This document shows positions 24,065-41,285 of a stretch of DNA of 41,359 nucleotides, in pieces; position 1 is the stretch's first letter; the number at the start of each line of letters is the position of its first letter. Under the pieces are notes generated by a model. It saw only the letters and a list, made by a program, of their open reading frames with translations, did not search any database and was not told where the DNA came from. This stretch comes from Eubacteriales bacterium. Its GTDB lineage: Bacteria > Bacillota > Clostridia > Oscillospirales > Oscillospiraceae. A program made the translations under genes and the position numbers. The stretch is taken from contig JAUNPV010000017.1 in NCBI GenBank assembly GCA_030536515.1, positions 1 through 41,359 of the forward strand. The letters are read 5' to 3'.

Positions 24065-24074
24065 TCAAAAATGC

Positions 24075-24799: not shown

Positions 24800-26371
24800 T
24801 CATGCACCGACCCCGGCTTCATTCTCGGTGTCTGATTCGATGTCGTTGAACTTCCAAACGATCTCAATGCTTTCTGCATCGTAGACCAAGACGCGCTCAA
24901 TGGCGTCATACATATGAGCCTTGAGCTGTTCGTTAGATAAGCCAGTCATGCGACTGACTGTGTGCTGCTGTTCGTTGGCAGCGTCGCTCATTTTCTGAGC
25001 TTCTTCAATACGGGCTTCGCATTCATTATGCTGCTCTTTCAGGGCAGCTTCTTTTGTTGTAAGGGCTTCTTTCTGCTCAAGGTATTCCTGAGCGGTAATG
25101 CCGCCCTCACGGTACTTCTCATAGTAGCTGAACTTATCGCGGCTAATCGAGTCGATTTGAGCCGAGAGTATGACAAGCTGCTGTTGCAGATCATCGCCTT
25201 TTTTCTTGACCACCTTTTGAGTGGTTGTGGTTTCAAGAGAGACAATCTCTATTTGTCGCTTGAGAGCTTCAAACACCACTTCTTCGAGAGATGTTTTGCG
25301 CCAGTGTACCTTACTGCAAGGGCTGTCTTCCTGATACCGGTGGAACGGACAGGCAAAGACTGTACCATTTGCTTTCTCAAGTTTTCCGCCGCAGTGACCG
25401 CAGTAGTAAACTCTGTCAGCCTGATCGTGGGCTTGACGCTTATAGCCTCTTCGACGCTGGATGGCGTCCTGTGCAGCATCGTACTCTTCCTGAGTGACAA
25501 TAGCTTCGTGAGCATTCGACCGGATGTACCACTCTTCCTTCGGGACACGACGCTGGCTCTTGTCACGGATAAACCGACTTTCTCTCATGTGGTTGACCAT
25601 CGTGCCGGTATACTTGATGTTCTCTATCAGAGTCAGGACTGCTCGGTGTGTCCACTGAGGCGTCCTTTCAGGGTTGCGTCGTTTTACGCCCTTATACTCA
25701 GAAGTTGTTTGGATTCCTTCCATATTAAGCAGCTTGGCAATCGCAGTGCAGGACTTCCCTGAAATGACATCCATGAAGATCCTCCGTACAACCGCAGCCG
25801 GTTCGGGATCAATCACCATTTGGTGCTTCGCATCAGGATTGACCTTGTACCCGTAAGGGACGCAAGTCACAAAGGCACACTCGCGCTGCTTCATTCCCAT
25901 AGCAGACTTGACCTTCTTGGAGAGGTCTTTGCTGTAATAGTCGTAAATCAGGTTCTTGAAGGCAATGTCCATGCCGATAGTCTTGCCCTTGTGCTTCTCG
26001 CTGTCATAGTGGTCATTGATGGACTTGAAACGAATACCAAGGAACGGGAAGATATGCTCAAGGTAGTCACCAACCTCAAGGTAATCACGCCCGAAACGGG
26101 AGAGGTCTTTGACCACGATACAGCTTATCTGTCCATGCTTGGTCATCTCAATCATTCGCTGGAAATCGGGACGATCAAAGTTCGTGCCGGAGAAACCGTC
26201 ATCACAGAACTCAATGCGTGGAAGGTCACGGAGCATAGGGTTCTGATCCAGATGGCGATTGATCAGCAGCCGTTGGGCAGCAATACTGTTGCTCTCATCC
26301 TTCACAGAGTTTGTACGCTTGTCCACATCTTCCAGTGACAAACGGAGATAAATGGCGATTTGCTGTTTCAT
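24800..26371 (-). CDS. Large serine recombinase 1
   Basis: Site-specific DNA recombinase of 523 aa. Resolvase-type catalytic domain with the nucleophile S12 in IYLRLSLED and catalytic arginines in VVKDLSRFGRDY; then the Recombinase domain (PYGYKVNP onward), a zinc ribbon with YYCGHCGGKL and further Cys/His residues, and a C-terminal coiled coil. Start ATG at 26371 overlaps the stop of recombinase 2 by 1 nt (TAATG), so it is translated by coupling. It is the recombinase closest to the attachment junction. The three proteins are related but clearly distinct; which ones catalyse integration and excision cannot be told. Confidence 0.95.
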   Translation of the reverse strand: MKQQIAIYLRLSLEDVDKRTNSVKDESNSIAAQRLLINRHLDQNPMLRDLPRIEFCDDGFSGTNFDRPDFQRMIEMTKHGQISCIVVKDLSRFGRDYLEVGDYLEHIFPFLGIRFKSINDHYDSEKHKGKTIGMDIAFKNLIYDYYSKDLSKKVKSAMGMKQRECAFVTCVPYGYKVNPDAKHQMVIDPEPAAVVRRIFMDVISGKSCTAIAKLLNMEGIQTTSEYKGVKRRNPERTPQWTHRAVLTLIENIKYTGTMVNHMRESRFIRDKSQRRVPKEEWYIRSNAHEAIVTQEEYDAAQDAIQRRRGYKRQAHDQADRVYYCGHCGGKLEKANGTVFACPFHRYQEDSPCSKVHWRKTSLEEVVFEALKRQIEIVSLETTTTQKVVKKKGDDLQQQLVILSAQIDSISRDKFSYYEKYREGGITAQEYLEQKEALTTKEAALKEQHNECEARIEEAQKMSDAANEQQHTVSRMTGLSNEQLKAHMYDAIERVLVYDAESIEIVWKFNDIESDTENEAGVGA

Positions 26372-28077: not shown

Positions 28078-29769
28078 TTATACCGCCTCCTTTGCCAGAT
28101 GAATAATTTTCTTGGCTGCCTCCTTCTTCTTGTAATCTTCCATGAACTCAACAATCGCGGCAAACTTATCGCCGTGCATGAGGCAGACTTCAATTTCTTT
28201 GTCCTCGTGGATGATAATACGGTCAATTAAGGAAACAACCACACTTCGGGTGATTTCTTGGATGTTGGCGTACTCACGGAACTGAGACAGCCAACCTTGC
28301 TGCTGAGATAAGCCGCCCATGATACTATTTCTGTCACTATGCAGCTTCATGATAGCATCCTGAGCTTCGCGGATCTTCTTGTCGAACTCCGCTTTGAAAG
28401 TTTCGTACTCGTCTCGTGTAAGCATCTGAGTACGGAAGTCCTCATACGCGCCGGTTTTCAGGCGTCGATTTTTGTCGATAATCTCTTCTTGAAAAGAGAT
28501 CTTCGCTGCGATTTTCTCAAGCTCTCTGTTTTCCCACGCCAGACTGTCAATCTGCTTCATCGCGTCTGCCATGTTCAGAGCAACCGCAATGTGAGCTTGG
28601 ATGACCGCAAGGACGGTATCGAAGACAAGTGATTCCTTGATACTATGGGAGGAACAAAAGCGCCGGTCATTCTTATTGCCACCACAGATAAAGTAGGCAT
28701 ACTCGTTGTCACCGCTGCGGGACACCTTTCTGACCATTGCACTCTCGCAGTCAGCACAGAAGATTTTGCCTGAGAAGGGATGAACGCCTTTCGCACCGAC
28801 TGGGCTTCTGGTATCATCCAACATCAACCGCTGTACAAGATCGAACTGAGCAGGAGCGATAATCGCCTCATGCGCATTCTCTGTTCTTGCCCATTCGCTT
28901 TCGTTCTTCACAACGGTTTTCTTAACCTTATGGTTTGGGGTAGTTGTTTTACCCTGAACCAGCGTTCCGGTATAAACCTCGTTTTTCAGAATCCGGTAGA
29001 TAGCAACTGCGCTCCACAGGGCTTGTTTCTTGGTTTGGAACGCTGTACGCTGCTTCGAGCCGTTGGCTCTTTTGTATTCAATCGGGGACAGCACACCACT
29101 GTCATTGAGCCGATCTGCGATCTGTGCCGGTGAAAGTCCTTCAATTTTCCATTTGAAGATGTCCTGGACAACCTGAGCTGCTTCTGGATCAACGACCAAC
29201 TGGTTCTTGTTGTCAGGAGAACGGAGGTAGCCAAAGACTACGCGGCTTCCCACAAACTGACCGTTGCGACGCTTCACATCAAGGTTTGTCCTGACCTTGA
29301 TAGAAATGTCGCGGCAGTAGGAGTCGTTCATCAGGTTCTTAAAGGGCAGCACCAGCTCATTGTCTGCTGCACCCGGCTGTGCGTTGTCATAGTGATCATT
29401 GATTGCTATGAAGCGGACGCCGAGCATCGGGAATATCTTTTGCAGATAGTTACCCGAATCAATGTACTCACGACCGAAACGCGAAAGGTCTTTTACGACT
29501 ATGCAGTCGATTTCACCGGCTCTTACTGCATCCATCATTTTCTGAAACTCAGGACGCTCAAAGGTTGCGCCGGAATATCCATCGTCGCAGTATTCACTCA
29601 CCACAACGATCTCCGGGTGTTTCTTGAGATAATCAAGAATGAGCAATCTCTGATTGGAGATACTATCGCTCTCAAGTTTGTCCCCGGAAAATGAAAAATC
29701 GCCATCTTCCTTCGATAATCTCAGGTAGATGGCGGCTTTATATTCTCTGTCCAATGTTAGTTTAAGCAT
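28078..29769 (-). CDS. Large serine recombinase 3
   Basis: 563-aa serine recombinase and first gene of the three-gene operon. Nucleophile S19 in IYLRLSKED, DDGYSGATFERPEFQ, arginine motif VVKDLSRFGREY, and a Recombinase domain. A zinc ribbon with FCADCESAM and CGG..CSSHSI is followed by a coiled coil. Start ATG at 29769. The gene-free stretch 29770-29933 upstream is AT-rich (TATATATAATACC near 29850) and probably contains the operon promoter, although no clear -35 box is seen. Confidence 0.95.
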   Translation of the reverse strand: MLKLTLDREYKAAIYLRLSKEDGDFSFSGDKLESDSISNQRLLILDYLKKHPEIVVVSEYCDDGYSGATFERPEFQKMMDAVRAGEIDCIVVKDLSRFGREYIDSGNYLQKIFPMLGVRFIAINDHYDNAQPGAADNELVLPFKNLMNDSYCRDISIKVRTNLDVKRRNGQFVGSRVVFGYLRSPDNKNQLVVDPEAAQVVQDIFKWKIEGLSPAQIADRLNDSGVLSPIEYKRANGSKQRTAFQTKKQALWSAVAIYRILKNEVYTGTLVQGKTTTPNHKVKKTVVKNESEWARTENAHEAIIAPAQFDLVQRLMLDDTRSPVGAKGVHPFSGKIFCADCESAMVRKVSRSGDNEYAYFICGGNKNDRRFCSSHSIKESLVFDTVLAVIQAHIAVALNMADAMKQIDSLAWENRELEKIAAKISFQEEIIDKNRRLKTGAYEDFRTQMLTRDEYETFKAEFDKKIREAQDAIMKLHSDRNSIMGGLSQQQGWLSQFREYANIQEITRSVVVSLIDRIIIHEDKEIEVCLMHGDKFAAIVEFMEDYKKKEAAKKIIHLAKEAV

Positions 29770-30704: not shown

Positions 30705-31184
30705 TTATTTGAAAAATTTTTTTGCCTGCTTTCTGATAAGGCAAATTGTTTGGTGGACACCTTGAGGGCTGTTACCATGTTGCTCTGCAAATGCTTTGCA
30801 AGTTACACCAGACTTCATGCAAGTTTCGTATACCTCTCTCTGATAAGGAGATAGAATTGATAAAAACTGTTTCTCGACCATAGCGGTCATAATTTCTTCT
30901 TCCATGTTATAGGAGTCCTCAAGCCACGCAGGGTCCATATCCTCGCCACCTTCATAGGAAACATAATCCAAAGAGAGTAGAGTAGTTGTTTCCTGAACAC
31001 ACTCCGAAGCCGGGACGCCTGTCATAGAGCGGCGAACTTTCTTTTCTTCGGCTCTCAGCAGCCGGAATGCCTCACGGCTGACCTCGCATTCCTCCTTGGT
31101 GGCTTTGACGCGAACCATGCACTTGCCGTCCTCCGTAGTCCAGAGGTCGTAATCGAACTCGATAGGGGTTTTAGGGATTTTCAT
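30705..31184 (-). CDS. Sigma-70 region 4-like protein
   Basis: A 159-aa protein. The N-terminal part (residues 1-110) is charged, with IEFDYDLWTTEDGKCMVRVK. The C-terminal ~55 residues match sigma region 4/HTH: FLSILSPYQREVYETCMKSG, then GVTCKAFAEQHGNSPQGVHQT and IRKQAKKFF, with the typical two helices of the -35-binding HTH. No region 2 is seen, so it is either an anti-sigma-like/transcription activator or a sigma-like regulator of the element. Start at 31184 (MKIPKTPIEF) after AAAGGAAAAG; a longer frame from 31313 runs through the terminator hairpin and is rejected. Confidence 0.75.
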   Translation of the reverse strand: MKIPKTPIEFDYDLWTTEDGKCMVRVKATKEECEVSREAFRLLRAEEKKVRRSMTGVPASECVQETTTLLSLDYVSYEGGEDMDPAWLEDSYNMEEEIMTAMVEKQFLSILSPYQREVYETCMKSGVTCKAFAEQHGNSPQGVHQTICLIRKQAKKFFK

Positions 31185-31228
31185 TGTCTTTTCCTTTCCG
31201 CTGGCACGGAGCAGCGGATGGAAAAGGC

Positions 31229-31311
31229 AAAAAAGAGCCGCATGACGGTGAGTTGCATTCCCATACCGAAGGAACAGAGACTTCAATGAAGAAGTTCTGT
31301 TCTCATGCGGC
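31229..31311 (-). terminator. Hairpin terminator/attenuator before the sigma-like gene
   Basis: On the minus strand GCCGCATGA (31311-31303) pairs with TCATGCGGC (31245-31237), followed by TCTTTTTTG. Inside is a second stem, GAACAGAACTTC with GAAGTCTCTGTTC. It ends the dinB-side operon (last stop at 31360). Since the sigma-like gene lies 45 nt further, it could also act as an attenuator. Confidence 0.7.
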
Positions 31312-31359
31312 ATTAGGAAGACTCACCATCAGCGGCTCCACAGCACAGCTATAAAATAT

Positions 31360-31641
31360 TTATTTGTTATTATCTCCGAACTTAGCGGAAGAGATTGCCT
31401 CTCTGCGCATTCGGAGTCGTAACCTTCTCATGCTGAGAACATCAAAGACGGTTTCGCGTCCACAAGCCTTGCATTTGGCTTGGACATGACCTCTCGTGTC
31501 CTCGAAAACAACGATAGAGTTGTGATTACAGTACGGGCATTTGACATATCGCGGTTTCTGGCTTGCGATAGCCTTTCTTGCCCGGACGATTTTTACTTGC
31601 ATCTCAGAGGAAGGCTCAGAGACGCGGATTGATTTACTCAT
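31360..31641 (-). CDS. Small zinc-ribbon protein
   Basis: A 93-aa protein: a basic N-terminal stretch, then a zinc ribbon with CPYCNHNSIVVF and CKACGRETVF, and an Arg-rich C-terminal helix (MRRLRLRMRRE). This is likely a nucleic-acid-binding protein. ATG at 31641, with GGAGGTG (31647-31653), overlaps the stop of the ImmA-like gene by 4 nt (ATGA). It is the last gene of the leftward operon from the switch region. Confidence 0.75.
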   Translation of the reverse strand: MSKSIRVSEPSSEMQVKIVRARKAIASQKPRYVKCPYCNHNSIVVFEDTRGHVQAKCKACGRETVFDVLSMRRLRLRMRREAISSAKFGDNNK

Positions 31642-32372
31642 GCCCACACCTCCACAGGATCATAAAATTCTGCATAGGAGTAGTCATTGATATAGCCCAG
31701 CTCCCGCAACCGGATAACGGCAGCGGACTTGGAGACGCCGAGCGTCTGGCAAAGTAAGGTCAGTGCCAGCCGATCTGAATAGCCAAAGTAGCCCTCAAAG
31801 TTGGAGAGTTTCCTGTTTCCGGCAAAATACCACATGGCACGATCAATCTCTTTCTGGGGCATTAGGAGGGCAGCACCAAGCACATTTGCTTGCCACTCAT
31901 TCCAATCCTCACGGCTTTTCAAATCTCGGAGGGAGTAAGCTCTGCGTTCTGCATAACGCTTCCGGCAGGACGCTTGCTCTTCATCCGATTCGAGCTGGAA
32001 AAGAATTTGATGGGCGCATTCATGGGCAAGCGTAAATCTTCGCTTACCGCAGAGTTTCCGAACCTCTCCCGGACGGATAAAACTCTCGTCCAGAAGAACT
32101 TGATTTCTTTTGAGGGGGATGGAGCGCACCCGACCCAGTTCCTCAATCTGATATTCTGTATCTGTATATGCGGTCAAACCGCAAAGGCTTCCATCCGTGG
32201 ACAGTCTGGCGAAAGTGACACTCAATCCGAGGTAGTCACTCGCAAGCTGGTCAATCGGAGTAGCCTGAACAAAGCGTTTGTTGTCATCACCGCTTTCTCC
32301 AAAAAAGAACTGGTTAAAGTCCTTTGTGACTGCGGCTGCTATTTCTTCAATTTTTGCGCGGGATAAAATCAT
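31638..32372 (-). CDS. ImmA/IrrE-type metallopeptidase (left arm)
   Basis: A 244-aa protein with the zinc-protease motif HECAHQ (HExxH) in FTLAHECAHQILF, a downstream EWQANVLGAALLMP segment with the third zinc ligand Glu, and a C-terminal HTH-like part (LCQTLGVSKSAAVIRLREL). ImmA/IrrE peptidases cleave XRE-type repressors. The start at 32372 (MILSRAKIEE) follows AGGTAC/GGAGGT at 32379-32384 and overlaps the previous stop (ATGA). It is a second, diverged peptidase besides that at 34873, in the opposite arm of the same regulatory system. Confidence 0.85.
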   Translation of the reverse strand: MILSRAKIEEIAAAVTKDFNQFFFGESGDDNKRFVQATPIDQLASDYLGLSVTFARLSTDGSLCGLTAYTDTEYQIEELGRVRSIPLKRNQVLLDESFIRPGEVRKLCGKRRFTLAHECAHQILFQLESDEEQASCRKRYAERRAYSLRDLKSREDWNEWQANVLGAALLMPQKEIDRAMWYFAGNRKLSNFEGYFGYSDRLALTLLCQTLGVSKSAAVIRLRELGYINDYSYAEFYDPVEVWA

Positions 32373-32626
32373 CAGCGTACCTCCTTGGCTTCTACAAACC
32401 ATTTATCGTCTTCATTGAACAAGTAAGTCTCCTTTCCACAAATCATGACAGTATACCGAATACCACACCCGCCAACCTTGGTGGATGCAGCACGGCATCT
32501 GTGCTTGAGTCGATCAATCTCAAAGACATGACCGTCCTCCCATAAAATAGAACGCGGGCGTATATTTCCGTCTGTATCGACATCTAAATTGACCGCAACA
32601 TATACTTTTCTGCATCTCTGTTCCAT
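32372..32626 (-). CDS. Small conserved protein associated with Y-family polymerase
   Basis: An 84-aa protein with VYVAVNLDVDTDGNIRPRSI, WEDGHVFEIDRLKHRCRAAS and GGCGIRYTVMICGKETYLF. From memory such proteins sit beside UmuC/DinB genes in Clostridial genomes and mobile elements; the function is unknown. It overlaps the ImmA-like gene by 3 nt and starts 9 nt after the 32636 gene. Confidence 0.7.
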   Translation of the reverse strand: MEQRCRKVYVAVNLDVDTDGNIRPRSILWEDGHVFEIDRLKHRCRAASTKVGGCGIRYTVMICGKETYLFNEDDKWFVEAKEVR

Positions 32627-32635
32627 ATCTCTCCC

Positions 32636-32947
32636 TCAACTGAATTGACTGACCGACATAATGACTCTACCCATGAAGGGACATCCATCAAGCCGTGTCA
32701 GAGACAATTTGAGCTGCTTTTCACCGTTGATGATCGTGTCTGTCTCAAAGACATTTAGCTCGTTCTTTCGGAAGGGCTTCTTCGGATCAACGATGAGCAG
32801 CGAGTTCTCAGCTATCCCATAAAGAAGAAAGTTGTTATCTCCGTTAGCATGAACACAGAACAAATCCTTCAAATTATGGTAGCCTTCAAAACCAAGCAAG
32901 CCACCACTCATGATAAGTGAGTGCTGCTTTTCTGCGGGTAAAATCAT
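32636..32947 (-). CDS. Small polymerase-associated protein with S24/LexA-like C-terminal pattern
   Basis: A 103-aa protein. The segment LFCVHANGDNNFLLYGIAEN, followed by SLLIVDPKKPFRKNELNVF, resembles the S24/LexA/UmuD fold (GDSM..I..GDLLLVD), but the catalytic Ser position reads Asn (GDNN) and no proper Lys is seen, so it would be inactive as a protease. It begins 10 nt downstream of the dinB-like gene with GGAGG before the ATG. It could be a degenerate UmuD-like partner of the polymerase; this is inference. Confidence 0.6.
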   Translation of the reverse strand: MILPAEKQHSLIMSGGLLGFEGYHNLKDLFCVHANGDNNFLLYGIAENSLLIVDPKKPFRKNELNVFETDTIINGEKQLKLSLTRLDGCPFMGRVIMSVSQFS

Positions 32948-32957
32948 AGTTCGCCTC

Positions 32958-34229
32958 CTATCCCAGCATACCGGATGGCATGATCAGTTCAACTTCTCGT
33001 TCTGACGTCATCTTGCTGTTGGCAAGGAGAATGCCATTCCTGACTGCGTTCTTTCCAAACCGGGCGCGGATAGACTCAATCGCCTGATCCAGACGCTCCC
33101 TTTTTTCAAGCGTTCTGACATCCGTGAAGAAGTCATACTGGTAAGGGCTGTCCTCGTCAACAAGGTAGATTGCCCGAACAGTCACAGAGCGGATCGGGTG
33201 CTGCCAGTTGTAGCTCTTTTGAAAAAGCTCAAAGGCTGTTTTCGCAAGGTGAGTGGGGCTTTGCGTGGGCATCCCAAATTTCTGCTGCCACTCCTTTGAG
33301 TAAAGCTCATTGTTTCGTATGCTGATCGCAATACCCTGCGCCTTCTTTTTATGCGTCCTCAGCTTAGTGCCAATGTCCTGCACCAACTCAAGCATGACTG
33401 CCCACACCTCGGCATCATTCTCAAGATCCTGCAAGGTAGTAGTACCATGACCGATGCTTTTCACCGGAGACACATAATCGGAGCGCATAACCGGAGAACG
33501 GTCTTCTCCGTTGGCATAACGCTTGAGTGCAAGCCCGTTCTTCCCGAACCGCGACTGCATCAGGCAATCAGGGGCAGCGGCAAGCTGTCCGATGGTACGA
33601 ATGCCATAGCTGGAAAGTGCCTTTTCAGTCGCTCTCCCGACGCCGAGCATATCTGACGCCGGTAAGTCCCAAATACGCTCCCGGAAAGTTTCCTTCTCAA
33701 TGCAAGTGATGGCATCCGGCTTTTTCAGATCAGAACCGAGCTTTGCAAATATCTTATTGAAGCTGACTCCGGCTGAGATGGTCAGTCCCAGCTCAAACTT
33801 GATTGTCCTTCGGATTTCATCAGCAATCTCAAAGCCTGTTCCCATCATGCTGCTGCCGGTGACATCCAGCCAACACTCATCCATGCCATACGGTTCAATC
33901 TGATCTGTGTACCGACTGTAAATCTCACGAGCCAGCTTAGAGAACTTCATGTACTGTTCGTAGTGTGGCTCAACAATGGTGAGGTTGGGGCATTTCATTT
34001 TAGCTTGCCATATTGCTTCACCGGTAGAAACGCCAAACGCCTTTGCCTTGTAGTTCTTTGCCAGAACAATTCCATGTCGCTCTTCGACTGAGCCACAAAC
34101 GGCAACCGCTTTGTCCCTTAAATCGGGATTCAGCATACACTCAACCGAAGCATAGAAGTTATTCATGTCACAATGGAGGATTACACGCTCCTTTGGGACA
34201 GAAAAAGTATCTTTTTCTGACACTTTCAA
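32958..34229 (-). CDS. Y-family DNA polymerase, DinB/Pol IV-like
   Basis: Translesion DNA polymerase of 423 aa. Catalytic acidic residues: D20 in ILHCDMNNFYASVEC and D-E in EPYGMDECWLDVTG. The HhH region LGVGRATEKALSSYGIRTIG and a little-finger domain follow. The start is uncertain: TTG at 34229 lies 4 nt after AGGGGGTG, and GTG at 34223 lies 11 nt after it. It is the first gene of the leftward operon, driven by the promoter at 34297-34325 with operator boxes. It differs clearly from the UmuC-type polymerase at 38576. Confidence 0.93.
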   Translation of the reverse strand: MKVSEKDTFSVPKERVILHCDMNNFYASVECMLNPDLRDKAVAVCGSVEERHGIVLAKNYKAKAFGVSTGEAIWQAKMKCPNLTIVEPHYEQYMKFSKLAREIYSRYTDQIEPYGMDECWLDVTGSSMMGTGFEIADEIRRTIKFELGLTISAGVSFNKIFAKLGSDLKKPDAITCIEKETFRERIWDLPASDMLGVGRATEKALSSYGIRTIGQLAAAPDCLMQSRFGKNGLALKRYANGEDRSPVMRSDYVSPVKSIGHGTTTLQDLENDAEVWAVMLELVQDIGTKLRTHKKKAQGIAISIRNNELYSKEWQQKFGMPTQSPTHLAKTAFELFQKSYNWQHPIRSVTVRAIYLVDEDSPYQYDFFTDVRTLEKRERLDQAIESIRARFGKNAVRNGILLANSKMTSEREVELIMPSGMLG

Positions 34230-34240
34230 TTCACCCCCTC

Positions 34241-34269
34241 TTGACTATATGAGAAGTTCGGTGTATACT
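34241..34269 (+). promoter_or_regulatory. Rightward promoter of the XRE operon
   Basis: TTGACT (34241-34246), 17-nt spacer, TATACT (34264-34269). Operator box 1 (34251-34265) fills the spacer. Transcription would start near 34276, giving a ~100-nt leader. Confidence 0.85.
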
Positions 34270-34350
34270 ATGAGTAGTTGAACTTCTCTATTTCCTATTA
34301 TAAGCAGTTGAACTTCCCTTGTCAATAGCTTTTGAGAAGTTGGACTTCTT
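34251..34350. promoter_or_regulatory. Four operator boxes of the two-armed switch
   Basis: Box 1 34251-34265 (GAGAAGTTCGGTGTA, weakest), box 2 34274-34288 (GTAGTTGAACTTCTC), box 3 34304-34318 (GCAGTTGAACTTCCC), box 4 34334-34350 (GAGAAGTTGGACTTCTT). Consensus AGTTGRACTTCT with imperfect dyad symmetry around TGR. Boxes 2, 3 and 4 are spaced ~30 bp, three helical turns, so bound dimers would lie on one face. The XRE protein encoded next to them is the natural binder. Confidence 0.8.
34297..34325 (-). promoter_or_regulatory. Leftward promoter of the dinB-side operon
   Basis: On the minus strand TTGACA (34325-34320), 17-nt spacer, TATAAT (34302-34297): a perfect consensus. Operator box 3 fills the spacer. 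It points toward the rightward promoter, so the two start sites (about 34290 and 34276) face each other and the first bases of the transcripts overlap. Confidence 0.88.
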
Positions 34351-34377
34351 AAATTTTGCAAAGGAGTGAACGGACAA

Positions 34378-34806
34378 ATGACATTTGGTGAAAAAGTGAA
34401 GGCGCAGCGCAAGAATTTGGAACTGACTCAGGACGCTCTCGCTGAACGAGTTGGTGTTACCCGTCGAGTTATTACTTCCTATGAGAATGATCGATCCCGT
34501 CCCAGAGGAACTGCCGCATACCAGCGTCTCGCGGACGCATTGGAGGTCAATATCAATTATCTACTCTCTGAGGATGAGGCTTTTATTGCCGATGCGGAGG
34601 AACAGTTTGGCTATCGCGGCAAGAAGGGTGCAGAAAAGCTCCTTGGTGAAGTAACCGGTTTGTTTGCCGGTGGTGAAATGGCTGAGGAAGACATGGATGA
34701 GCTGATGCTTGCCATTCAGGAGGCGTACATCGACGCGAAGAAGCGGAACAAGAAGTACACACCAAAAAAATACCGAAAGACTGAAACTGACGACACTGAG
34801 CAGTAA
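34378..34806 (+). CDS. XRE-family repressor (ImmR-like)
   Basis: A 142-aa regulator. The Cro/C1 HTH is at residues ~5-60: FGEKVKAQRKNLELTQDALA, ERVGVTRRVITSYENDRSRP and LADALEVNINYLL. The C-terminal part is acidic then Lys-rich (KKRNKKYTPKKYRK). Start at ATG 34378 after AAGGAG (34361-34366); a GTG at 34366 overlaps the ribosome site and is rejected. It lies next to the four operators and directly before an ImmA/IrrE peptidase, the ICEBs1 ImmR-ImmA arrangement in which the peptidase inactivates the repressor on induction. The gene is probably autoregulated through box 1. Confidence 0.92.
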   Translation: MTFGEKVKAQRKNLELTQDALAERVGVTRRVITSYENDRSRPRGTAAYQRLADALEVNINYLLSEDEAFIADAEEQFGYRGKKGAEKLLGEVTGLFAGGEMAEEDMDELMLAIQEAYIDAKKRNKKYTPKKYRKTETDDTEQ

Positions 34807-34872
34807 TCAGTCCGACTTATTGGACAGATTGTTTGATAGAATTATCTGATAAAACCCGAAAGGGGTGATACC

Positions 34873-35388
34873 GTGTTAATACGAGCGGAAGACGCCGTAA
34901 GGAAAGCGGAAAGCATAGTCCGCAGATGTGAAACGAGAAATGCTGACCAGATTGCAAGAGAACTGGGTTTGATTGTCGTTCCACGCAATTTCACAAAGCA
35001 AAAGGGCGTCTACAAAGTTATTGAGCGCAACCGATACATTTTCATAAAAGCGGACTTACACCCTGTCATGCACTCCATTGTGCTGCTGCATGAGATCGGT
35101 CATGATGTCTTGCACCGCGCGGAGGCAATAAGAGTCGGTGGTTTTCAGGAGTTCAATATCTTCGATATGCGAGATCACCGTATGGAGTATGAAGCCAATA
35201 TGTTTGCGGCGCAGATTGCCTTGCCGGATGAAGACATACTTGAGCTGATTTACAATGGTTATGATGTGGGACAAATTGCACGGGCAATGGAGTCTGACAT
35301 AAACCTTGTTGCACTGAAAGTTGCGGAGTTGAACAGCCGGGGATATTCTTTCCGGGAGCAGGAACATCGAAACGACTTCCTGAAATAA
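34873..35388 (+). CDS. ImmA/IrrE-family metallopeptidase (right arm)
   Basis: A 171-aa protein with HEIGH in IVLLHEIGHDVLHR and the third zinc ligand region MEYEANMFAAQIALPDED; both are diagnostic of ImmA. By family knowledge it cleaves the neighbouring XRE repressor upon DNA damage or another signal. The start is GTG at 34873 after AAAGGGGTG. It sits 66 nt after the XRE gene on the same strand. It shares little beyond the motif with the peptidase at 31638. Confidence 0.92.
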   Translation: MLIRAEDAVRKAESIVRRCETRNADQIARELGLIVVPRNFTKQKGVYKVIERNRYIFIKADLHPVMHSIVLLHEIGHDVLHRAEAIRVGGFQEFNIFDMRDHRMEYEANMFAAQIALPDEDILELIYNGYDVGQIARAMESDINLVALKVAELNSRGYSFREQEHRNDFLK

Positions 35389-35399
35389 GGAGAACTGCT

Positions 35400-35726
35400 A
35401 TGGCGAAAAAGGATGTACTGAAAGACTTTCTCAAGAAAACAGTGCTGCCGGTACTTGCAGCACTTCTACTCTTCACCATGTTCAGCCGGATCTTCACAGA
35501 GAACGGAGCGATTGACTGGTTCCTTGTCTGGCTCGCTTGCGGAGTGCCGTTTGGCATTGGGAAGATGTTCACACTGATACCGATTGGCTATGGGATTTCC
35601 GGGACGGTTGGTGTGGTTGCCTTGAACATCGTTCTAGGTGGTCTGATCGGTGGCGTGATTTTGATTTGGAAACTTGCAGTGGCACTCTGGTATGTGCCGC
35701 TGAGTATATACAGGCTGTTTGCCTGA
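35400..35726 (+). CDS. Small membrane protein
   Basis: A 108-aa protein with three hydrophobic helices: VLPVLAALLLFTMF (about 16-30), IDWFLVWLACGVPFGIG (38-54) and a long one from VGVVALNIVLGGLIGGVIL onward (70-100). A Lys-rich N-terminus faces the cytosol. Similar proteins in Clostridia are, from memory, annotated DUF6050; the function is unknown. ATG at 35400 after AAGGAG, 11 nt after the ImmA stop. Confidence 0.7.
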   Translation: MAKKDVLKDFLKKTVLPVLAALLLFTMFSRIFTENGAIDWFLVWLACGVPFGIGKMFTLIPIGYGISGTVGVVALNIVLGGLIGGVILIWKLAVALWYVPLSIYRLFA

Positions 35727-35741
35727 ATGGAGGATTTAGAT

Positions 35742-36230
35742 ATGAGCAGAAAATTAGTAGCATATTTCTCAGCAACCGGTGTGACCGCGAAGGTTGCAGA
35801 AAACCTCGCAGAAGCAATCGGAGCTGATGTTTTTGAAATTGAACCCGCTGTTGCTTACACGACACCTGATCTCGATTGGAGAAACAAGCAGTCCAGAAGC
35901 AGCATTGAGATGAGCGACGCGGCATCCCGTCCTGCTATCTCTGTGAAGCGAGATAACATGGATGAGTACGACACTGTGTTTGTCGGCTTCCCGATCTGGT
36001 GGTATGTAGCTCCCACCATCATCAACACTTTCCTTGAGAGCTATGACCTGACCGGCAAGACGATCATTCCCTTTGCAACTTCCGGTGGCAGCAGTATGGG
36101 AATAACCAACGAAAAGCTCCTGCCGAGCTGTCAGGACGCCAAGCTGCTTGAGGGTAAGGTCTTCAAGGCTGCTTCGACCAAAGCAGAGCTGGCAGCATGG
36201 GAAGAGAGCTTAAAACTCTCTGATATGTAA
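35742..36230 (+). CDS. Flavodoxin
   Basis: A 162-aa FMN-binding redox protein. Phosphate loop YFSATGVTAKVAENLAEAI at the N-terminus (SATG in place of the more common S/T-x-TGNT), FVGFPIWWYVAPTIINTFLE (FMN-stacking aromatic Trp-Trp-Tyr), and PFATSGGSSMG near the second loop. This is the flavodoxin_4 type that is common in gut Clostridia. Start at ATG 35742 (MSRKL) after GGAGG; an ATG at 35727 lies upstream of the ribosome site. What it reduces here is unknown; its presence among damage-tolerance genes is unusual. Confidence 0.88.
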   Translation: MSRKLVAYFSATGVTAKVAENLAEAIGADVFEIEPAVAYTTPDLDWRNKQSRSSIEMSDAASRPAISVKRDNMDEYDTVFVGFPIWWYVAPTIINTFLESYDLTGKTIIPFATSGGSSMGITNEKLLPSCQDAKLLEGKVFKAASTKAELAAWEESLKLSDM

Positions 36231-36255
36231 GCTCAATCGCAAAGAGGGCATTACT

Positions 36256-36966
36256 ATGGAAGACATTATTTTTGAGCGTGATTATCACGAGGAACACGAA
36301 CGGCAGAACAAGAACAATCCTGCGTTCCAGATTTTTGACCGTGCGGTAAACGGTACTTTCTTCAAAGATTTCAATGACGCAATGGACACGATCCCAAAGG
36401 TCATTGTCCCGGAGGATAAAGCGAATTACGAATACCTTCTGAACCGCTGCGATGAGCTGGCACATCGGCTGGGCGGCAAGGTCAGAGGAATTGTTGACTT
36501 CCATCATTGGTCAGCGAATATTGATGTGACCTTGCCTTTCTTTGAGTTTGGATCGCCGGATGAACTTGAGTTCATGAAAGAGGTCTCCGAGAAAGCAGAT
36601 TATCTGCTATTTGAGCCTGAGAAAGACGGCAAGATGCGTATGCACATCATGGTCAACTACTTTGAAGAGCTGATGACGGAGGAACATAAAGGTTATCTCC
36701 GCTACGACGCCATTATGAACGATCCTGTCCTTGCCTCCATGCTTCAAATGCCTGAGCTGCCGCCCGATGTGTTGGAAATAGCACAGCGGATGAATACAAC
36801 CCTTGACCGGTTCGAGGCTGAGACAGATGCAGACCGAACCACAGTGTTCAAGGCGGTTCTGGAAAATATGATGAAGCAGGACGAGGAAAACCAAACGCTT
36901 GAATTTATGGCAGACCGCATGGAGCAACTGCTGGAAATGTATCTGAACGGCGAGCCGGAAGAATAA
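36256..36966 (+). CDS. Protein of unknown function, acidic, 236 aa
   Basis: Soluble and strongly acidic; no family recognised. The middle contains ELAHRLGGKVRGIVDFHHWS and ANIDVTLPFFEFGSPDELEF, predicted alpha/beta. The C-terminal half is helical (EIAQRMNTTLDRFEAETDAD) and ends in acidic residues. AAAGAGGGC precedes the ATG at 36256. It lies 25 nt after the flavodoxin and 16 nt before the macro-domain gene, clearly within the operon. Confidence 0.75.
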   Translation: MEDIIFERDYHEEHERQNKNNPAFQIFDRAVNGTFFKDFNDAMDTIPKVIVPEDKANYEYLLNRCDELAHRLGGKVRGIVDFHHWSANIDVTLPFFEFGSPDELEFMKEVSEKADYLLFEPEKDGKMRMHIMVNYFEELMTEEHKGYLRYDAIMNDPVLASMLQMPELPPDVLEIAQRMNTTLDRFEAETDADRTTVFKAVLENMMKQDEENQTLEFMADRMEQLLEMYLNGEPEE

Positions 36967-36982
36967 GACAAGGAGAACGATT

Positions 36983-38020
36983 ATGCCACTACATATCGTC
37001 AGAAATGACATTACAAAAATGAAAGTGGACGCAATCGTCAATGCTGCTAACAGCTCATTACTGGGAGGCGGCGGGGTTGACGGCTGCATCCATCGTGCTG
37101 CAGGACCGGAGCTACTTGCCGAGTGCGAGAAGCTGGGCGGCTGTGAAACCGGAAACGCAAAGATCACCGGCGCAGGAAAGCTGCCGTGTAAGTATGTAAT
37201 TCATGCAGTGGGACCGCGCTGGCGGGATGGCAAGCACGGAGAGCGGGACAAGCTCATCTCCTGCTACCGAACATCCCTCAAGCTGTCGAAGGACAACAAC
37301 TGCGAGTCCCTTGCCTTCCCGTTGATTTCCTCTGGCATCTATGGCTATCCGAAAGACCAGGCACTCAAGGTTGCCATTGATACCATCAGTGACTTTCTTC
37401 TTGAAAATGAGATGACTGTCTACATCGTCATCTTTGACCGTAAGGCATATCAGATCAGCAGCAAGCTCTTTGCGGATATTGCCGAGTACATTGACGAAAA
37501 CTATGTGGACGAGCATACCGATGACCGGTCTGACCGCATTCGCCGGTTGAACGCAATTCAGGAGATAGACTTCTCCTGCGACGCTGCCATATGCGAAGAA
37601 GACGAGGCAGATGAGCTTCTTGCCTTCCCGATGATGGCAGAATCCAAAATGCTCACGCTGGATGATGCACTTGAACAGATCGACGAGAGCTTTTCGGAAA
37701 TGCTGCTTCGGAAGATCGACGAGAAAGGTATGACCGATGCACAGTGCTATAAGAAGGCAAACATCGACCGGAAGCTCTTCTCAAAGATCCGCAGCGACAA
37801 GCTCTACAAGCCCAGCAAACCGACTGTGATTGCCTTTGCGATTGCACTTGAGCTGCCGCTGGAAGAAACAAAGGATATGCTGATGAAGGCTGGCTTTGCC
37901 CTGTCCCACTCCAACAAGTTTGACATTATTGTGGAGTTCTTCATTTCTCAGGGCAAGTACAATGTGTTTGAGATCAATGAAGCTCTGTTCGCTTTTGACC
38001 AGAGTTTGCTCGGAGCGTAA
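36983..38020 (+). CDS. Macro-domain protein with C-terminal XRE-like HTH
   Basis: A 345-aa fusion. Residues 1-170 form a macro domain: ADP-ribose-binding VNAANSSLLGGGGVDG (residues ~19-34), IHAVGPRW, and FPLISSGIYGYP. Macro domains bind or hydrolyse ADP-ribose derivatives, including protein ADP-ribosylation and O-acetyl-ADP-ribose. Residues ~225-330 carry MTDAQCYKKANIDRKLFSKI and YKPSKPTVIAFAIALELPLE, an HTH pattern like Cro/C1 proteins. AAGGAG lies just before the ATG. So the protein may link NAD/ADP-ribose signals to DNA or to the element's operators. No ADP-ribosyltransferase is visible in the window. Confidence 0.9.
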   Translation: MPLHIVRNDITKMKVDAIVNAANSSLLGGGGVDGCIHRAAGPELLAECEKLGGCETGNAKITGAGKLPCKYVIHAVGPRWRDGKHGERDKLISCYRTSLKLSKDNNCESLAFPLISSGIYGYPKDQALKVAIDTISDFLLENEMTVYIVIFDRKAYQISSKLFADIAEYIDENYVDEHTDDRSDRIRRLNAIQEIDFSCDAAICEEDEADELLAFPMMAESKMLTLDDALEQIDESFSEMLLRKIDEKGMTDAQCYKKANIDRKLFSKIRSDKLYKPSKPTVIAFAIALELPLEETKDMLMKAGFALSHSNKFDIIVEFFISQGKYNVFEINEALFAFDQSLLGA

Positions 38021-38032
38021 GGAGGCAATGCT

Positions 38033-38554
38033 ATGTGGCTCAAAATGGATTTGGACGGCATCATTGTAAGCCTACAAGTCAGAGGGTATAAGAAGGTTGC
38101 TGACGATGACTGGGACTCAACATGGTGCAAAACTGATTTCTCTTTCATTTCAGAACCGTGGCTGAACTATCAAAAAAGAAATGATGAGGTCTTCCTTGCG
38201 AGAGAGATTGATGGACTATCTGATGTTCTTAAAGCGTTGCTGGAAAATCGTCTCGCTGAAAAAACTGAGTTCAACTGTATCGAACCGGATTTCAACTTTA
38301 CACTGAATCCGGTTAAGGACTTACGCCTCGATCCTAATGTTACCTATGTCAGCCCGGGGCATGAGTTCGTTGACATAGATATGGAGTGGCAAGTGTCTTT
38401 CTGGCATGATGGACTGACCGCAAATTATCTTTCAGTTACACTGAGTCGCGAGGAAATTGAATATCTGCTAACATACTTGCGGCTTGTGACCGGTGAGATC
38501 TGCGAGGATGATCCTGCAATTAAAAGACTTATCCAGATGAATATAATCTACTGA
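38033..38554 (+). CDS. Unknown protein, possibly WapI-like immunity fold
   Basis: A 173-aa soluble acidic protein, no firm family. Beta-rich N-terminus (MDLDGIIVSLQVRGY), Trp-rich middle (WQVSFWHDGLTANYLSVTLS) and a C-terminal helix EEIEYLLTYLRLVTG. This layout loosely recalls WapI-type immunity proteins, but that is a guess. AAGGAGGC precedes the ATG at 38033; it sits 12 nt after the macro gene and 21 nt before umuC, so it is operonic. Confidence 0.6.
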   Translation: MWLKMDLDGIIVSLQVRGYKKVADDDWDSTWCKTDFSFISEPWLNYQKRNDEVFLAREIDGLSDVLKALLENRLAEKTEFNCIEPDFNFTLNPVKDLRLDPNVTYVSPGHEFVDIDMEWQVSFWHDGLTANYLSVTLSREEIEYLLTYLRLVTGEICEDDPAIKRLIQMNIIY

Positions 38555-38575
38555 TTAAGGAGGTGTAGCCGGAGC

Positions 38576-40099
38576 ATGAAACAGAGAACTTATATTGCAA
38601 TCGACCTCAAGAGCTTTTATGCTTCGGTTGAGTGTATCTCAAGGGGACTTGACCCCATGACCACAAACCTTGTTGTCGCTGATGAAAGCAGAACCGAGAA
38701 AACCATCTGCCTTGCGGTAACGCCTTCCCTCAAGTCCTACGGCATACCGGGACGGGCGCGGCTGTTTGAAGTTGTTCAAAAAGTCAAGGAAGCAAATGCG
38801 CGGCGAAAAGAAAAAGCACCGGGACGAGCCTTCACCGGAGCGTCCTCAAACGCCACAGAGTTGAACGCCCACCCGGAGCTGTCTCTGGACTATATTGTCG
38901 CGCCGCCGCGTATGGCACACTACATGGAATGCAGCACCCGAATTTATCAGGTATACCTCAAATACATCGCACCGGAGGACATCCATGTCTATTCGATTGA
39001 CGAGGTATTCATCGACGCAACGGATTATCTGAACACCTATCAGCTCTCCGCTCGTGAGCTTGCGATGAAGATGATCCTTGATGTTCTTGGCACGACCGGC
39101 ATCACTGCTACTGCGGGAATTGGCACAAACCTCTTTCTCTGCAAAGTGGCAATGGACATTCAAGCGAAGCACATTCCTGCCGATAAAAACGGGGTCCGAA
39201 TTGCCGAACTGGACGAGATGACTTACCGCCGTCTCTTCTGGTCACATCGCCCTCTGACCGACTTCTGGCGGGTAGGTGTTGGCTATGCAAAGAAGCTGGA
39301 AAAAGTCGGACTTTACACGATGGGCGATGTCGCAAGATGCTCCATCGGCAAGCCCACGGATTACTACAACGAAGAACTTCTCTACAAGCTCTTTGGCGTA
39401 AATGCGGAGCTGCTGATCGACCACGCATGGGGCTGGGAACCATGCACCATTGCCGACATCAAAGCCTACAAGCCAAGCTCAAACAGTGTCGGCTCAGGAC
39501 AGGTTTTACAGTATCCTTATCCCTTCGATAAGGCAAAGCTCGTTGTCCGTGAAATGACCGACCTACTGGTTCTGGACTTGGTTGATAAGGGACTTGTGAC
39601 TGACCAGCTTGTTCTCACAGTTGGCTATGACATAGAGAACCTTTCAAACCCCGACATCCGAAAAAACTATCACGGAGCTGTGACCGCCGACCGGTACGGA
39701 AGGCAGATTCCCAAACACGCCCACGGCACTGCCAATCTCGGCAAGCACACTTCATCTACAAAGCAAATCCTTCAAGCCGTTGCAGAACTCTTCGACCGGA
39801 TCGTAGACAAAAACCTTCTGGTTCGTAGACTGAACATCGTCGCAAACCATGTGCTTGATGAAGCCTCTGCGCCACAGCAGGATGACTGCCAACAGCTTGA
39901 CTTCTTTACCGATTATGCAGCGCAGGAAAAAAAGAAAAAAGCCGAAGCTGCCGACCTTGCCCGTGAGCGAAAGATGCAGGAAGCCATGCTGTCTATCAAG
40001 AAAAAGTTCGGCAAGAATGCAATCCTCAAGGGGATGAACTTGGAGGACGGAGCGACTGCAAAGGATAGGAACAGTCAGATCGGAGGACACAAGGCATGA
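38576..40099 (+). CDS. Y-family DNA polymerase, UmuC/UvrX-like
   Basis: Translesion polymerase of 507 aa. Catalytic residues: IAIDLKSFYASVECIS at the N-terminus and YSIDEVFIDATDYL for the Asp-Glu pair. FTGASSNATELNAHP-type inserts and a long little finger with HGTANLGKHTSSTKQILQAV are typical of the UmuC/UvrX type. The C-terminal tail is Lys-rich, with a QLDFF segment (CQQLDFFTDY) that looks like a beta-clamp-binding motif. AAGGAGGTG lies 11 nt before the ATG. It overlaps yolD by 4 nt. It is the second Y-family polymerase of the element, in the opposite arm from the DinB-like enzyme. Confidence 0.95.
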   Translation: MKQRTYIAIDLKSFYASVECISRGLDPMTTNLVVADESRTEKTICLAVTPSLKSYGIPGRARLFEVVQKVKEANARRKEKAPGRAFTGASSNATELNAHPELSLDYIVAPPRMAHYMECSTRIYQVYLKYIAPEDIHVYSIDEVFIDATDYLNTYQLSARELAMKMILDVLGTTGITATAGIGTNLFLCKVAMDIQAKHIPADKNGVRIAELDEMTYRRLFWSHRPLTDFWRVGVGYAKKLEKVGLYTMGDVARCSIGKPTDYYNEELLYKLFGVNAELLIDHAWGWEPCTIADIKAYKPSSNSVGSGQVLQYPYPFDKAKLVVREMTDLLVLDLVDKGLVTDQLVLTVGYDIENLSNPDIRKNYHGAVTADRYGRQIPKHAHGTANLGKHTSSTKQILQAVAELFDRIVDKNLLVRRLNIVANHVLDEASAPQQDDCQQLDFFTDYAAQEKKKKAEAADLARERKMQEAMLSIKKKFGKNAILKGMNLEDGATAKDRNSQIGGHKA

Positions 40100-40518
40100 A
40101 CAAGAATTATGATGATATTATCAATCTGCCCCATCATGTCTCTTCTGCCCGTCCTCATATGTCTGCCATTGACCGGGCGGCTCAGTTCTCTCCCTTCGCT
40201 GCCCTGACCGGTTATGATGCAGCGGTCAAGGAAACCGCTCGACTGACTGGTGAACGAATTGAACTGGATGAGTACGAGAAGGACGCACTCAACGACAAAC
40301 TCCAACTCATTGTCGATACCTTGGGACAAGGGTATCAGATAGCAGTTACCTACTTCCTGCCGGACAAAAGGAAGGCTGGTGGCGAGTATATTACTGTCAC
40401 CGGAGAGGTCAAAAAGATTGATGAGTACGAACACCTTATCATCCTGAGAAATGGGCAGAAGATCCCCGTGGAGGAAGTCATAGATCTTGATGGTAAGCTG
40501 TTCAAGTCTCTACAATAA
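40096..40518 (+). CDS. YolD-like protein
   Basis: A 140-aa protein of the YolD family, which is found next to UmuC/UvrX-type polymerases in Bacillus and Clostridia and is thought to replace UmuD. Core: RAAQFSPFAALTGYDAAVKE, then YFLPDKRKAGGEYITVTGEV and KIDEYEHLIIL. Start overlaps the polymerase stop (ATGA), which implies coupled translation and a working pair. The C-terminus is followed by a hairpin that separates it from the vWA gene. Confidence 0.93.
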   Translation: MNKNYDDIINLPHHVSSARPHMSAIDRAAQFSPFAALTGYDAAVKETARLTGERIELDEYEKDALNDKLQLIVDTLGQGYQIAVTYFLPDKRKAGGEYITVTGEVKKIDEYEHLIILRNGQKIPVEEVIDLDGKLFKSLQ

Positions 40519-40557
40519 TGTCGCTTGCCATGCGACCAGAACAACAGAATATTTCCG

Positions 40558-40600
40558 TATAATATGACTGTAAGGTAAAAAACCAAGCAGTCATATTTTT
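40558..40600 (+). terminator. Hairpin between yolD and the vWA gene
   Basis: ATATGACTG (40562-40570) pairs with CAGTCATAT (40588-40596), followed by TTTTATATA. It fits an intrinsic terminator of the rightward operon. TATAAT at 40558-40563 overlaps it and could be the -10 of a separate vWA promoter, but no good -35 lies 16-18 nt upstream. Confidence 0.7.
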
Positions 40601-40619
40601 ATATACGGAGGTACTGAAC

Positions 40620-41285
40620 ATGAAGAAGAACTTGACTGAGATCGTATTTATTCTTGACCGTAGCGGCTCTATGTCCGGGCTGGAAGCAGACACCATCGGA
40701 GGCTTCAACTCTATGATCCAGAAGCAGAAAAAGCAGGAAGGCGAAGCTCTGATTTCCACTGTCCTCTTCGACAATGTGAGTGAGGTTATTCACGACCGTG
40801 TGGATGTCCAGAGGATTGCTCCCATGACCGACAAGGACTACTCTGTCCGGGGCTGTACTGCTCTGCTGGATGCCATTGGCGGTGCAATCCACCACATCGG
40901 CAATGTCCATAAGTATGCCAGGGCTGAGGATGTGCCGGAGCATACACTGTTCGTCATCACAACCGATGGAATGGAGAACGCGAGCCACCGATATTCCAGC
41001 GACAAGGTGAAGCAGATGATCGAGCGTCAGAAGTCCAAGTACGGCTGGGAGTTTCTTTTCCTCGGTGCAAACATTGACGCGGTTGAAACCGCAAGGAACT
41101 TCGGGATCAGTGAAGACCGTGCTGTCAACTACCACTGTGACAGTGAAGGAACTCAGCTCAACTACGAAGTTCTCAGCGAGGCGATCAGTGCTGTCCGGTG
41201 CAGCGCACCTCTGAGCGCGGACTGGAAGGCGCGGATTGATGAAGACTATGAAAAGCGTGAAAAAGGGGTGCGAAAAGCAAAATAA
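40620..41285 (+). CDS. von Willebrand factor A-domain protein (TerY-like)
   Basis: A 221-aa cytosolic vWA protein with a complete metal-ion-dependent adhesion site: D13-R-S15-G-S17, T80 in RGCTALLDAIG, and D116 in ITTDGMEN. FLGANIDAVETARNFGI also fits the bacterial vWA group that includes TerY. Start at ATG 40620 after ACGGAGGTAC. No signal peptide. vWA proteins act as ligand-binding adaptors, often with MoxR ATPases or Ter proteins; none is seen in the window. It may be read through from the umuC-yolD operon or have its own promoter. Confidence 0.88.
   Translation: MKKNLTEIVFILDRSGSMSGLEADTIGGFNSMIQKQKKQEGEALISTVLFDNVSEVIHDRVDVQRIAPMTDKDYSVRGCTALLDAIGGAIHHIGNVHKYARAEDVPEHTLFVITTDGMENASHRYSSDKVKQMIERQKSKYGWEFLFLGANIDAVETARNFGISEDRAVNYHCDSEGTQLNYEVLSEAISAVRCSAPLSADWKARIDEDYEKREKGVRKAK

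What the first reader, a model, noticed from the sequence alone, without database searches (positions are those of the whole stretch)
31360..41285. Mobile inducible mutasome: two Y-family polymerases under one ImmR/ImmA-like switch
The left arm has a DinB-like polymerase with two small accessory proteins; the right arm has a UmuC/UvrX-like polymerase with YolD. Both arms share the operators and are flanked by XRE and ImmA genes instead of LexA. This predicts LexA-independent induction of error-prone repair by repressor cleavage, carried by the element. Flavodoxin, macro-domain and unknown proteins are in the same transcript, hinting at a wider stress module that I do not know as a described system.
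Basis: partly seen in the sequence, partly recalled or inferred. Interest (0 to 1): 0.85.

Follow-up and report, generated by a model that had tools for sequence, protein, structure and literature searches.

The report
Mobile repressor-protease switch for mutagenic polymerases
A mobile DNA element in a bacterium carries two error-prone DNA-copying enzymes on opposite sides of one repressor-and-protease switch, and the same kind of switch recurs beside such enzymes in related bacteria, suggesting a way to turn on mutagenic repair without the usual SOS master regulator.

Summary
The anatomy is confirmed. One 136-bp gap (34230-34365) separates a leftward DinB operon from a rightward XRE-ImmA-...-UmuC-YolD run. 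It holds two near-consensus promoters facing each other and three or four operator copies.

The layout is conserved: a facing pair of similar quality occurs in 54 of 66 XRE loci against 0 of 1320 shuffles. Operators are alike within a locus but differ between loci. A Y-family polymerase lies within 8 kb of XRE in 29 of 40 loci, against 0 of 17 other M78-protease loci.

The surroundings are a mobile element (three serine recombinases; a relaxase in two relatives). Relatives reach 98% DNA identity between genera. In the loci examined only the window has both polymerases; 0 of 16 relatives holding the core genes have DinB beside the switch.

The host has LexA; no canonical LexA-like box lies in the gap. 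Damage-induced cleavage is inferred from ImmR/ImmA and DdrO/IrrE, not shown. Facing promoters make equal co-induction doubtful. DUF955 peptidase, ImuB-C and DinB were already linked in 2013 (PMC3765255), so this is a new variant.

The parts
34230..34365 (.). switch region between the two divergent gene runs: two promoters facing each other, with O1 (centre about 34259, half-site), O2 (34280), O3 (34310), O4 (34342)
34297..34325 (-). left-arm promoter P-: TTGACA-17-TATAAT, 12 of 12
34241..34269 (+). right-arm promoter P+: TTGACT-17-TATACT, 10 of 12
34274..34286 (.). operator O2 GTAGTTGAACTTC
34304..34316 (.). operator O3 GCAGTTGAACTTC, in the P- spacer
34336..34348 (.). operator O4 GAAGTTGGACTTC
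34366..34806 (+). XRE repressor (146 aa): HTH, conserved C-terminal LFAGGE...KYTPKKY stretch
34873..35388 (+). ImmA-type M78 metalloprotease, HEIGH motif
35400..35726 (+). DUF6050 protein
35727..36230 (+). flavodoxin (Flavodoxin_4)
36256..36966 (+). 236-aa protein of unknown family, recurs in relatives
36983..38020 (+). macro-domain protein (ADP-ribose hydrolase type), unassigned C-terminal half
38033..38554 (+). WapI-like immunity-family protein
38576..40099 (+). UmuC/UvrX-type Y-family polymerase; DLKSFY, SIDE and QLDFF motifs
40096..40518 (+). YolD-like partner, overlaps the polymerase gene by 4 bp
40620..41285 (+). VWA-like protein (weak Pfam match)
32958..34229 (-). DinB/Pol IV-type Y-family polymerase; DMNNFY, GMDE, QYDFF motifs
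32636..32947 (-). 103-aa protein, no family; 29% relative at the same place in a Monoglobus record
32372..32626 (-). 84-aa protein of a small DinB-neighbour family; probably a standalone ImuB-C-like subunit (sequence test inconclusive)
31638..32402 (-). second M78 metalloprotease, HECAH motif
31360..31647 (-). zinc-ribbon-like protein (weak matches)
30705..31313 (-). 202-aa protein conserved in the element family, no family assigned
24800..29769 (-). three large serine recombinases in tandem (Pfam run on the leftmost; the other two cluster with it)

Best explanation
This is the master switch of an integrative mobile element, turned into a control point for translesion synthesis. An XRE repressor made from P+ binds operators placed in and between two promoters that face each other, holding down both its own run of genes (XRE, ImmA, cargo, UmuC-YolD) and the leftward run (DinB, two small proteins, a second M78 protease, reading towards the recombinases). 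On DNA damage ImmA cleaves XRE and both promoters open. P-, the better promoter, should dominate because the transcribing enzymes collide; the second protease may reinforce the switch. The element thus supplies DinB with an ImuB-C-like subunit and UmuC-YolD outside the host's LexA control, together with its own excision. Shown by sequence: genes, catalytic motifs, promoter and operator sequences and their conservation. Inferred: repressor binding, cleavage, damage sensing, interference, feedback, transcript extents and polymerase output.
For: Facing promoters in 54 of 66 XRE loci, 0 of 1320 shuffles (33 loci after removing near-copies); in the 13 closest viral-contig relatives 12 of 13, in 31 more distant ones 1 of 31. 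O2, O3 and O4 are alike within loci and diverge between loci, as expected if each repressor has its own operator. Polymerase within 8 kb in 29 of 40 XRE-family loci against 0 of 17 control M78 loci. The polymerase type and side vary: DinB on the P- side (many), UmuC-YolD on the P- side (L057, L058), UmuC on the P+ side (L062, L068, L077 and the element family), and XRE-ImmA-Y-family polymerase on a Campylobacter plasmid. HExxH in 102 of 103 ImmA-family and 32 of 32 second-protease proteins; both window polymerases keep catalytic and clamp-like motifs, and the DinB family keeps xDE in 82 of 82 and the D...FY motif in 74 of 82. In three genomes of one genus the perfect operator occurs once per genome, at the dinB/XRE gap. 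A Monoglobus record has the same left arm in order, the same operator type and a facing pair.
Against: No expression, binding or cleavage data. O1 is weak and not palindromic, and one of three decoy offsets also gave z 4. Twelve of 66 loci lack the facing pair, among them L062, L068 and L077, three loci outside the element family with UmuC on the P+ side. Facing promoters argue against equal co-induction. The two-polymerase arrangement is seen once. 11 of 40 XRE-family loci have no polymerase within 8 kb. UmuC is the eighth gene of the rightward run, about 4.3 kb from P+, and could have its own promoter. YolD scores below Pfam's cut-off.
Confidence: 0.7

Rival explanations
1. It is simply the element's immunity/excision switch of the ICEBs1 ImmR/ImmA kind, and the polymerases are passengers that help DNA synthesis during or after transfer, not a mutagenesis programme.
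For: Serine recombinases lie on the left strand and a relaxase lies right of VWA in relatives L088 and L092. Sixteen relatives keep the switch and the core genes without DinB. Umu genes are common near oriT in conjugative elements (PMC11541004, passages read).
Against: The same switch sits beside DinB alone in settings that look resident: shared neighbours in L054/L056/L059 and in L071/L075. Control M78 loci lack polymerases.
Confidence: 0.35
2. The switch keeps the two arms mutually exclusive, as in phages with facing early promoters (recalled): one arm for the quiet state, one for the active state. The two polymerases would then serve different states.
For: In the 54 loci scoring 20 or more the -10 boxes face each other 24-40 bp apart; P- has the better consensus in the window.
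Against: Repressor sites overlap both promoters, so loss of repressor should open both; interference depends on strengths not measured here.
Confidence: 0.3
3. The XRE/M78 pair is a toxin-antitoxin-like stabilisation module and its place beside polymerases is incidental.
For: COG2856-XRE pairs were listed among TA-like systems (PMC2701414, passages read).
Against: 29 of 40 against 0 of 17 and conserved promoter and operator layout.
Confidence: 0.05

Closest known systems
ImmR/ImmA of ICEBs1 and TnSmu1 (PMC10233336, passages)
   Same: XRE repressor followed by an M78-type protease in an integrative element; TnSmu1 circularisation is induced by mitomycin C there
   Different: here the gene runs at the switch contain Y-family polymerases, the promoters face each other, and a second M78 protease lies in the other arm
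DdrO/IrrE of Deinococcus (PMC8072749, passages)
   Same: XRE repressor and M78 protease controlling repair genes without LexA
   Different: here a local, element-borne switch; the Deinococcus mutagenesis cassette is under RecA/LexA instead; no GAF-like domain found here
DinB with standalone ImuB-C and a DUF955 metallopeptidase (PMC3765255, passages; PMC6511836, section 17 and passages)
   Same: DinB, an ImuB-C protein and a zincin-like DUF955 peptidase linked by gene neighbourhood; ImuB-C with YqjH-type polymerases mostly from Clostridia
   Different: the term 'XRE' is counted 0 times in either paper; no shared operators, facing promoters or UmuC arm in the passages read
DdiA of Myxococcus xanthus (PMC12288472, abstract)
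   Same: XRE-family regulator of an error-prone polymerase (dnaE2) in a LexA-independent damage response
   Different: dnaE2 rather than a Y-family gene, and activation rather than repression; no M78 partner in the abstract
UmuC/UvrX-YolD operons and the Tn5252 UV-resistance operon
   Same: UmuC-type polymerase with a small partner, often mobile
   Different: the B. subtilis operons are predicted to be LexA-controlled (PMC6511836 passages); Tn5252 known only from a citation and recall
CapH/CapP of CBASS (mentioned in PMC10233336)
   Same: repressor cleaved by a metallopeptidase stimulated by ssDNA
   Different: output is defence, not polymerases

Membership tests
ImmR/ImmA-type switch | XRE repressor next to an M78 protease with HExxH | tested here: met
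ImmR/ImmA-type switch | operators overlapping the promoters of the two divergent gene runs | tested here: met
   (by sequence only)
ImmR/ImmA-type switch | damage-induced, protease-dependent repressor cleavage | not testable with these tools
   inferred from PMC10233336
DdrO/IrrE | IrrE carries a GAF-like domain | tested here: not met
   ImmA is 171 aa and Pfam finds only M78; the passage says such IrrE-like proteins generally lack it
LexA/SOS operon | LexA box at the promoter | tested here: not met
   no GAACNNNNGTTC with up to 1 mismatch in 34230-34365; two perfect matches elsewhere in the window, 28956 and 36562, lie inside genes. Caveat: the box is the recalled Bacillus one, and the host's own lexA promoter showed no clear copy, though its other umuC has GAACATATGTTG
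UmuC-YolD mutasome | Y-family domain with catalytic and clamp motifs | tested here: met
UmuC-YolD mutasome | YolD-family partner | tested here: inconclusive
   PF08863 E 4.2e-4, 20.8 bits against a cut-off of 27.5; position and 4-bp overlap fit
standalone ImuB-C (84-aa protein) | sequence match to DUF6504 (its equation with ImuB-C is recalled) | tested here: inconclusive
   1 of 23 members hits PF20114, E 0.064; PF20114 has no match over its cut-off in 197 genomes
standalone ImuB-C (84-aa protein) | about 80 residues, conserved C-terminal Trp and at least two conserved basic residues, next to DinB | tested here: met
   W76 nearly invariant, K7 and R57 invariant in 23 sequences; neighbour of DinB; criteria
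integrative mobilizable/conjugative element | site-specific recombinases | tested here: met
integrative mobilizable/conjugative element | relaxase and transfer genes | tested here: inconclusive
   contig ends after VWA; relaxase in L088 and L092; the one gene scanned in L096 was a DNA methylase; no transfer apparatus examined

The most novel reading that the evidence does not exclude
This XRE/M78 subfamily is a dedicated, LexA-free control system for mutagenic polymerases in Clostridia: resident and chromosomal in several LexA-lacking lineages, and carried by mobile elements into LexA-bearing hosts, where it gives an element its own mutation programme.
Probability: 0.35. Interest if true: 0.8.

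Novelty: new variant of a known kind. Interest (0 to 1): 0.6.

Why it matters
If the cleavage step holds, mobile elements of these bacteria can raise error-prone repair under their own control, independently of host LexA, and some bacteria without LexA may use the same switch for a resident DinB. The interchangeable operators and fixed promoter layout give a simple, testable model of how such switches diversify. A relative of the left arm sits next to predicted tetracycline-resistance genes in a Monoglobus record, so inducible mutagenesis may travel with resistance.

Tried and rejected
Exact repeated-word counts in upstream regions were uneven and were replaced by the within- versus between-locus operator comparison. 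A fixed-lag self-similarity test gave only weak peaks (best z 2.7) because spacing varies. LexA absence: I examined the neighbourhoods of the first 68 rows (188 of 295 genomes match there). The switch occurs in 19 of 27 loci of genomes with no or only weak LexA match against 7 of 41 with LexA (p 1.3e-5), and in 9 of 16 against 7 of 36 genera (p 0.02); independent pairs on the polymerase tree were inconclusive (9 and 4 pairs, median p 1). Several LexA-less genomes are incomplete. I therefore do not claim a replacement of LexA. A PF20114 search for ImuB-C relatives gave no match over cut-off. Comparing the 84-aa family with YolD gave no similarity. A profile search against PDB for the 84-aa family gave no convincing hit (best E 0.2); ImmA and the 103-aa protein had none. 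A viral scan with the 84-aa protein found no relative. Plasmid UmuC hits H1, H2 and H8 lack the XRE-ImmA pair as annotated. The Campylobacter p16192 locus lacks the facing pair by my scan, and its polymerase is only about 25% identical to either window polymerase. No structure model could be obtained.
Full report
OBSERVATION. The window is a whole contig of 41359 bases in a genome of 2.63 Mb. The left arm has a Pol IV-type polymerase, two small proteins, an M78 protease and a zinc-ribbon-like protein; further left on the same strand come a 202-aa protein, a DUF6870 protein and three serine recombinases. The right arm starts with XRE and ImmA and runs through cargo genes to UmuC, YolD-like and VWA-like genes; gaps from XRE to YolD are 66 bp or less. 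The genome has two more Y-family genes elsewhere, one LexA match and two further M78 hits outside the window.

THE SWITCH. The 136-bp gap holds a 12-of-12 promoter to the left and a 10-of-12 promoter to the right. Their -10 boxes lie inside, so each transcript should run across the other promoter: they face each other. Operator copies lie in the P- spacer (O3), between the promoters (O2) and beyond the P- -35 box (O4); a half-site lies in the P+ spacer (O1).

CONSERVATION. XRE was sought in 295 genomes of the order: 49 match at E 1e-15 or better, in 52 places. I fetched 40 of the 52 around XRE; the window is one of the other 12. Upstream regions often show the same layout with different operator words. 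Over 66 XRE genes in the loci held, 54 have a facing pair scoring 20 or more of 24; 0 of 1320 shuffles do. The 12 that do not include L062, L068 and L077, which have UmuC on the P+ side, and L046, L052 and L074, which have DinB. In a non-redundant 33, O2, O3 and O4 match each other within a locus far above other loci (z 7.2 to 8.8; 0 of 20000 each); pairs with O1 less so (z 1.9 to 3.2). Decoy offsets gave z 0.9, 4.0 and 3.0, so some similarity extends beyond the exact sites. O2, O3 and O4 are more palindromic than shuffles (z 4.7, 2.4, 2.5), O1 is not (z -1.5). Among viral contigs the 13 closest XRE relatives keep the pair in 12; the other 31 in 1. XRE ends in a conserved LFAGGE...KYTPKKY stretch, a candidate for recognition by the protease (inference).

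LINK TO POLYMERASES. A Y-family polymerase lies within 8 kb of XRE in 29 of 40 loci and within 2.5 kb in 24 of 40, against 0 of 17 for other M78 loci. The controls are 17 of 28 places listed; I left out nine places of the XRE family itself and two with very long frames, and some control contigs are short. Polymerase and side vary: DinB on the P- side, UmuC-YolD on the P- side (L057, L058), UmuC on the P+ side. On a polymerase tree of 82 rows (quick method; the careful search did not finish) the window's DinB groups with two other switch-linked DinBs (support 99), and the switch label needs 10 changes against 23.5 in shuffles, 0 of 500 as low.

RESIDENT FORMS. DinB-XRE-ImmA loci L054, L056 and L059 share neighbours, as do L071 and L075, which suggests a settled chromosomal place. 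In three genomes (G003, G028, G047) the perfect operator occurs once per genome, at the switch; three or four further sites per genome have one mismatch, against 0 or 1 control sites, and I did not examine them. The switch is commoner in genomes without LexA (19 of 27 loci against 7 of 41), but the test with independent pairs is inconclusive.

MOBILITY. A scan of titled genome records with the macro protein gave 526 relatives, of which the best 80 were kept. Sixteen of these 80 hold L84, XRE, ImmA, macro and UmuC, 15 in the window's order and one (L138) with UmuC before macro; 14 also have the second protease and zinc-ribbon genes; none has DinB between the 84-aa gene and XRE. They come from Oscillibacter, Faecalibacterium, Anaerotignum, Fournierella, Eisenbergiella and others, some from uncultured bins. 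Copies from different genera reach 98% DNA identity over 16-20 kb; other pairs are near 79%, and the window's best listed match is 74% over 3.1 kb. Right of VWA a MobA/VirD2 relaxase was found in L088 and L092; the single gene scanned in L096 was a DNA methylase. Terminator-like hairpins at 24075-24104 and 23961-23985 lie just left of the recombinases.

PARTNERS. The 84-aa protein belongs to a family lying beside DinB with or without the switch. Its size, near-invariant C-terminal Trp, invariant Lys and Arg and context fit the standalone ImuB-C proteins of PMC3765255 (passages) and PMC6511836 (section 17), but sequence matching is inconclusive. A Monoglobus record shows the same left arm in order: Pol IV 62%, 99-aa protein 29%, 83-aa protein 61%, protease 32%, then XRE 72% and ImmA 61%, with the same operator type and a facing pair. 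A Campylobacter plasmid carries XRE-ImmA-Y-family polymerase-small protein, without the facing pair by my scan.

MECHANISM. By analogy with ImmR/ImmA (PMC10233336, passages) and DdrO/IrrE (PMC8072749, passages), damage activates the protease, XRE is cut and both promoters open. The second protease could give positive feedback (inference). Facing promoters make strict co-induction unlikely (inference).

LITERATURE. Searches: ImmA with umuC, metalloprotease, DNA damage and repressor; IrrE, DdrO, COG2856 and others (20 of 3059 listed); ImmR, ImmA, UmuC; conjugative elements with umuC (15 of 19 listed); ICEBs1 ImmR/ImmA cleavage (12 of 16 listed); Y-family with YolD, XRE and others (15 of 17 listed); metallopeptidase, XRE, translesion, repressor; ImuB-C, YqjH, Clostridia; serine recombinase with macro domain and UmuC (none). 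No title or abstract start that I saw in these listings describes an XRE/M78 switch over Y-family polymerases; the library holds only open-licence papers and no preprints. PMC3765255 already links DUF955 peptidases with ImuB-C and DinB; that DUF955 is the older name of Peptidase_M78 is recalled. Passages of PMC12926913, PMC11541004 and PMC2701414 and the abstract of PMC12288472 were also read.

VERDICT. Anatomy confirmed; conserved switch well supported by sequence; function inferred; two-polymerase form unique to this window in what I examined.

Noticed in passing
L330 (NZ_OY725736.1) 3332-8057: Monoglobus pectinilyticus record with the same left arm and operator type, beside predicted tet(40) and tet(O/32/O) genes and a site-specific integrase gene.
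   Followed up: partly
L329 (NZ_CP012553.1) 6004-8775: XRE-ImmA-Y-family polymerase-small protein gene run on a Campylobacter plasmid, outside Bacillota.
   Followed up: partly
plasmid hits H1-H6 and H8-H15: UmuC-type polymerases are annotated as 'DNA methylase' in these plasmid records.
   Followed up: no
window 36983-38020 and 40620-41285; L087-L166: A VWA gene lies in the same fetched locus as the macro gene in 67 of 80 loci, most of them without the rest of the element.
   Followed up: no
L057, L058: UmuC-YolD takes the place of DinB on the P- side of the same switch, with facing promoters kept.
   Followed up: partly
L307, L308 (viral contigs): Viral contigs carrying DinB next to the 84-aa family, one also with the second M78 protease; only weak XRE matches there.
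   Followed up: no
L038 about 9997: The host's second umuC-yolD has a LexA-box-like GAACATATGTTG upstream, unlike the window's switch.
   Followed up: partly
window 23961-24104: Two strong terminator-like hairpins near the left end of the element.
   Followed up: no
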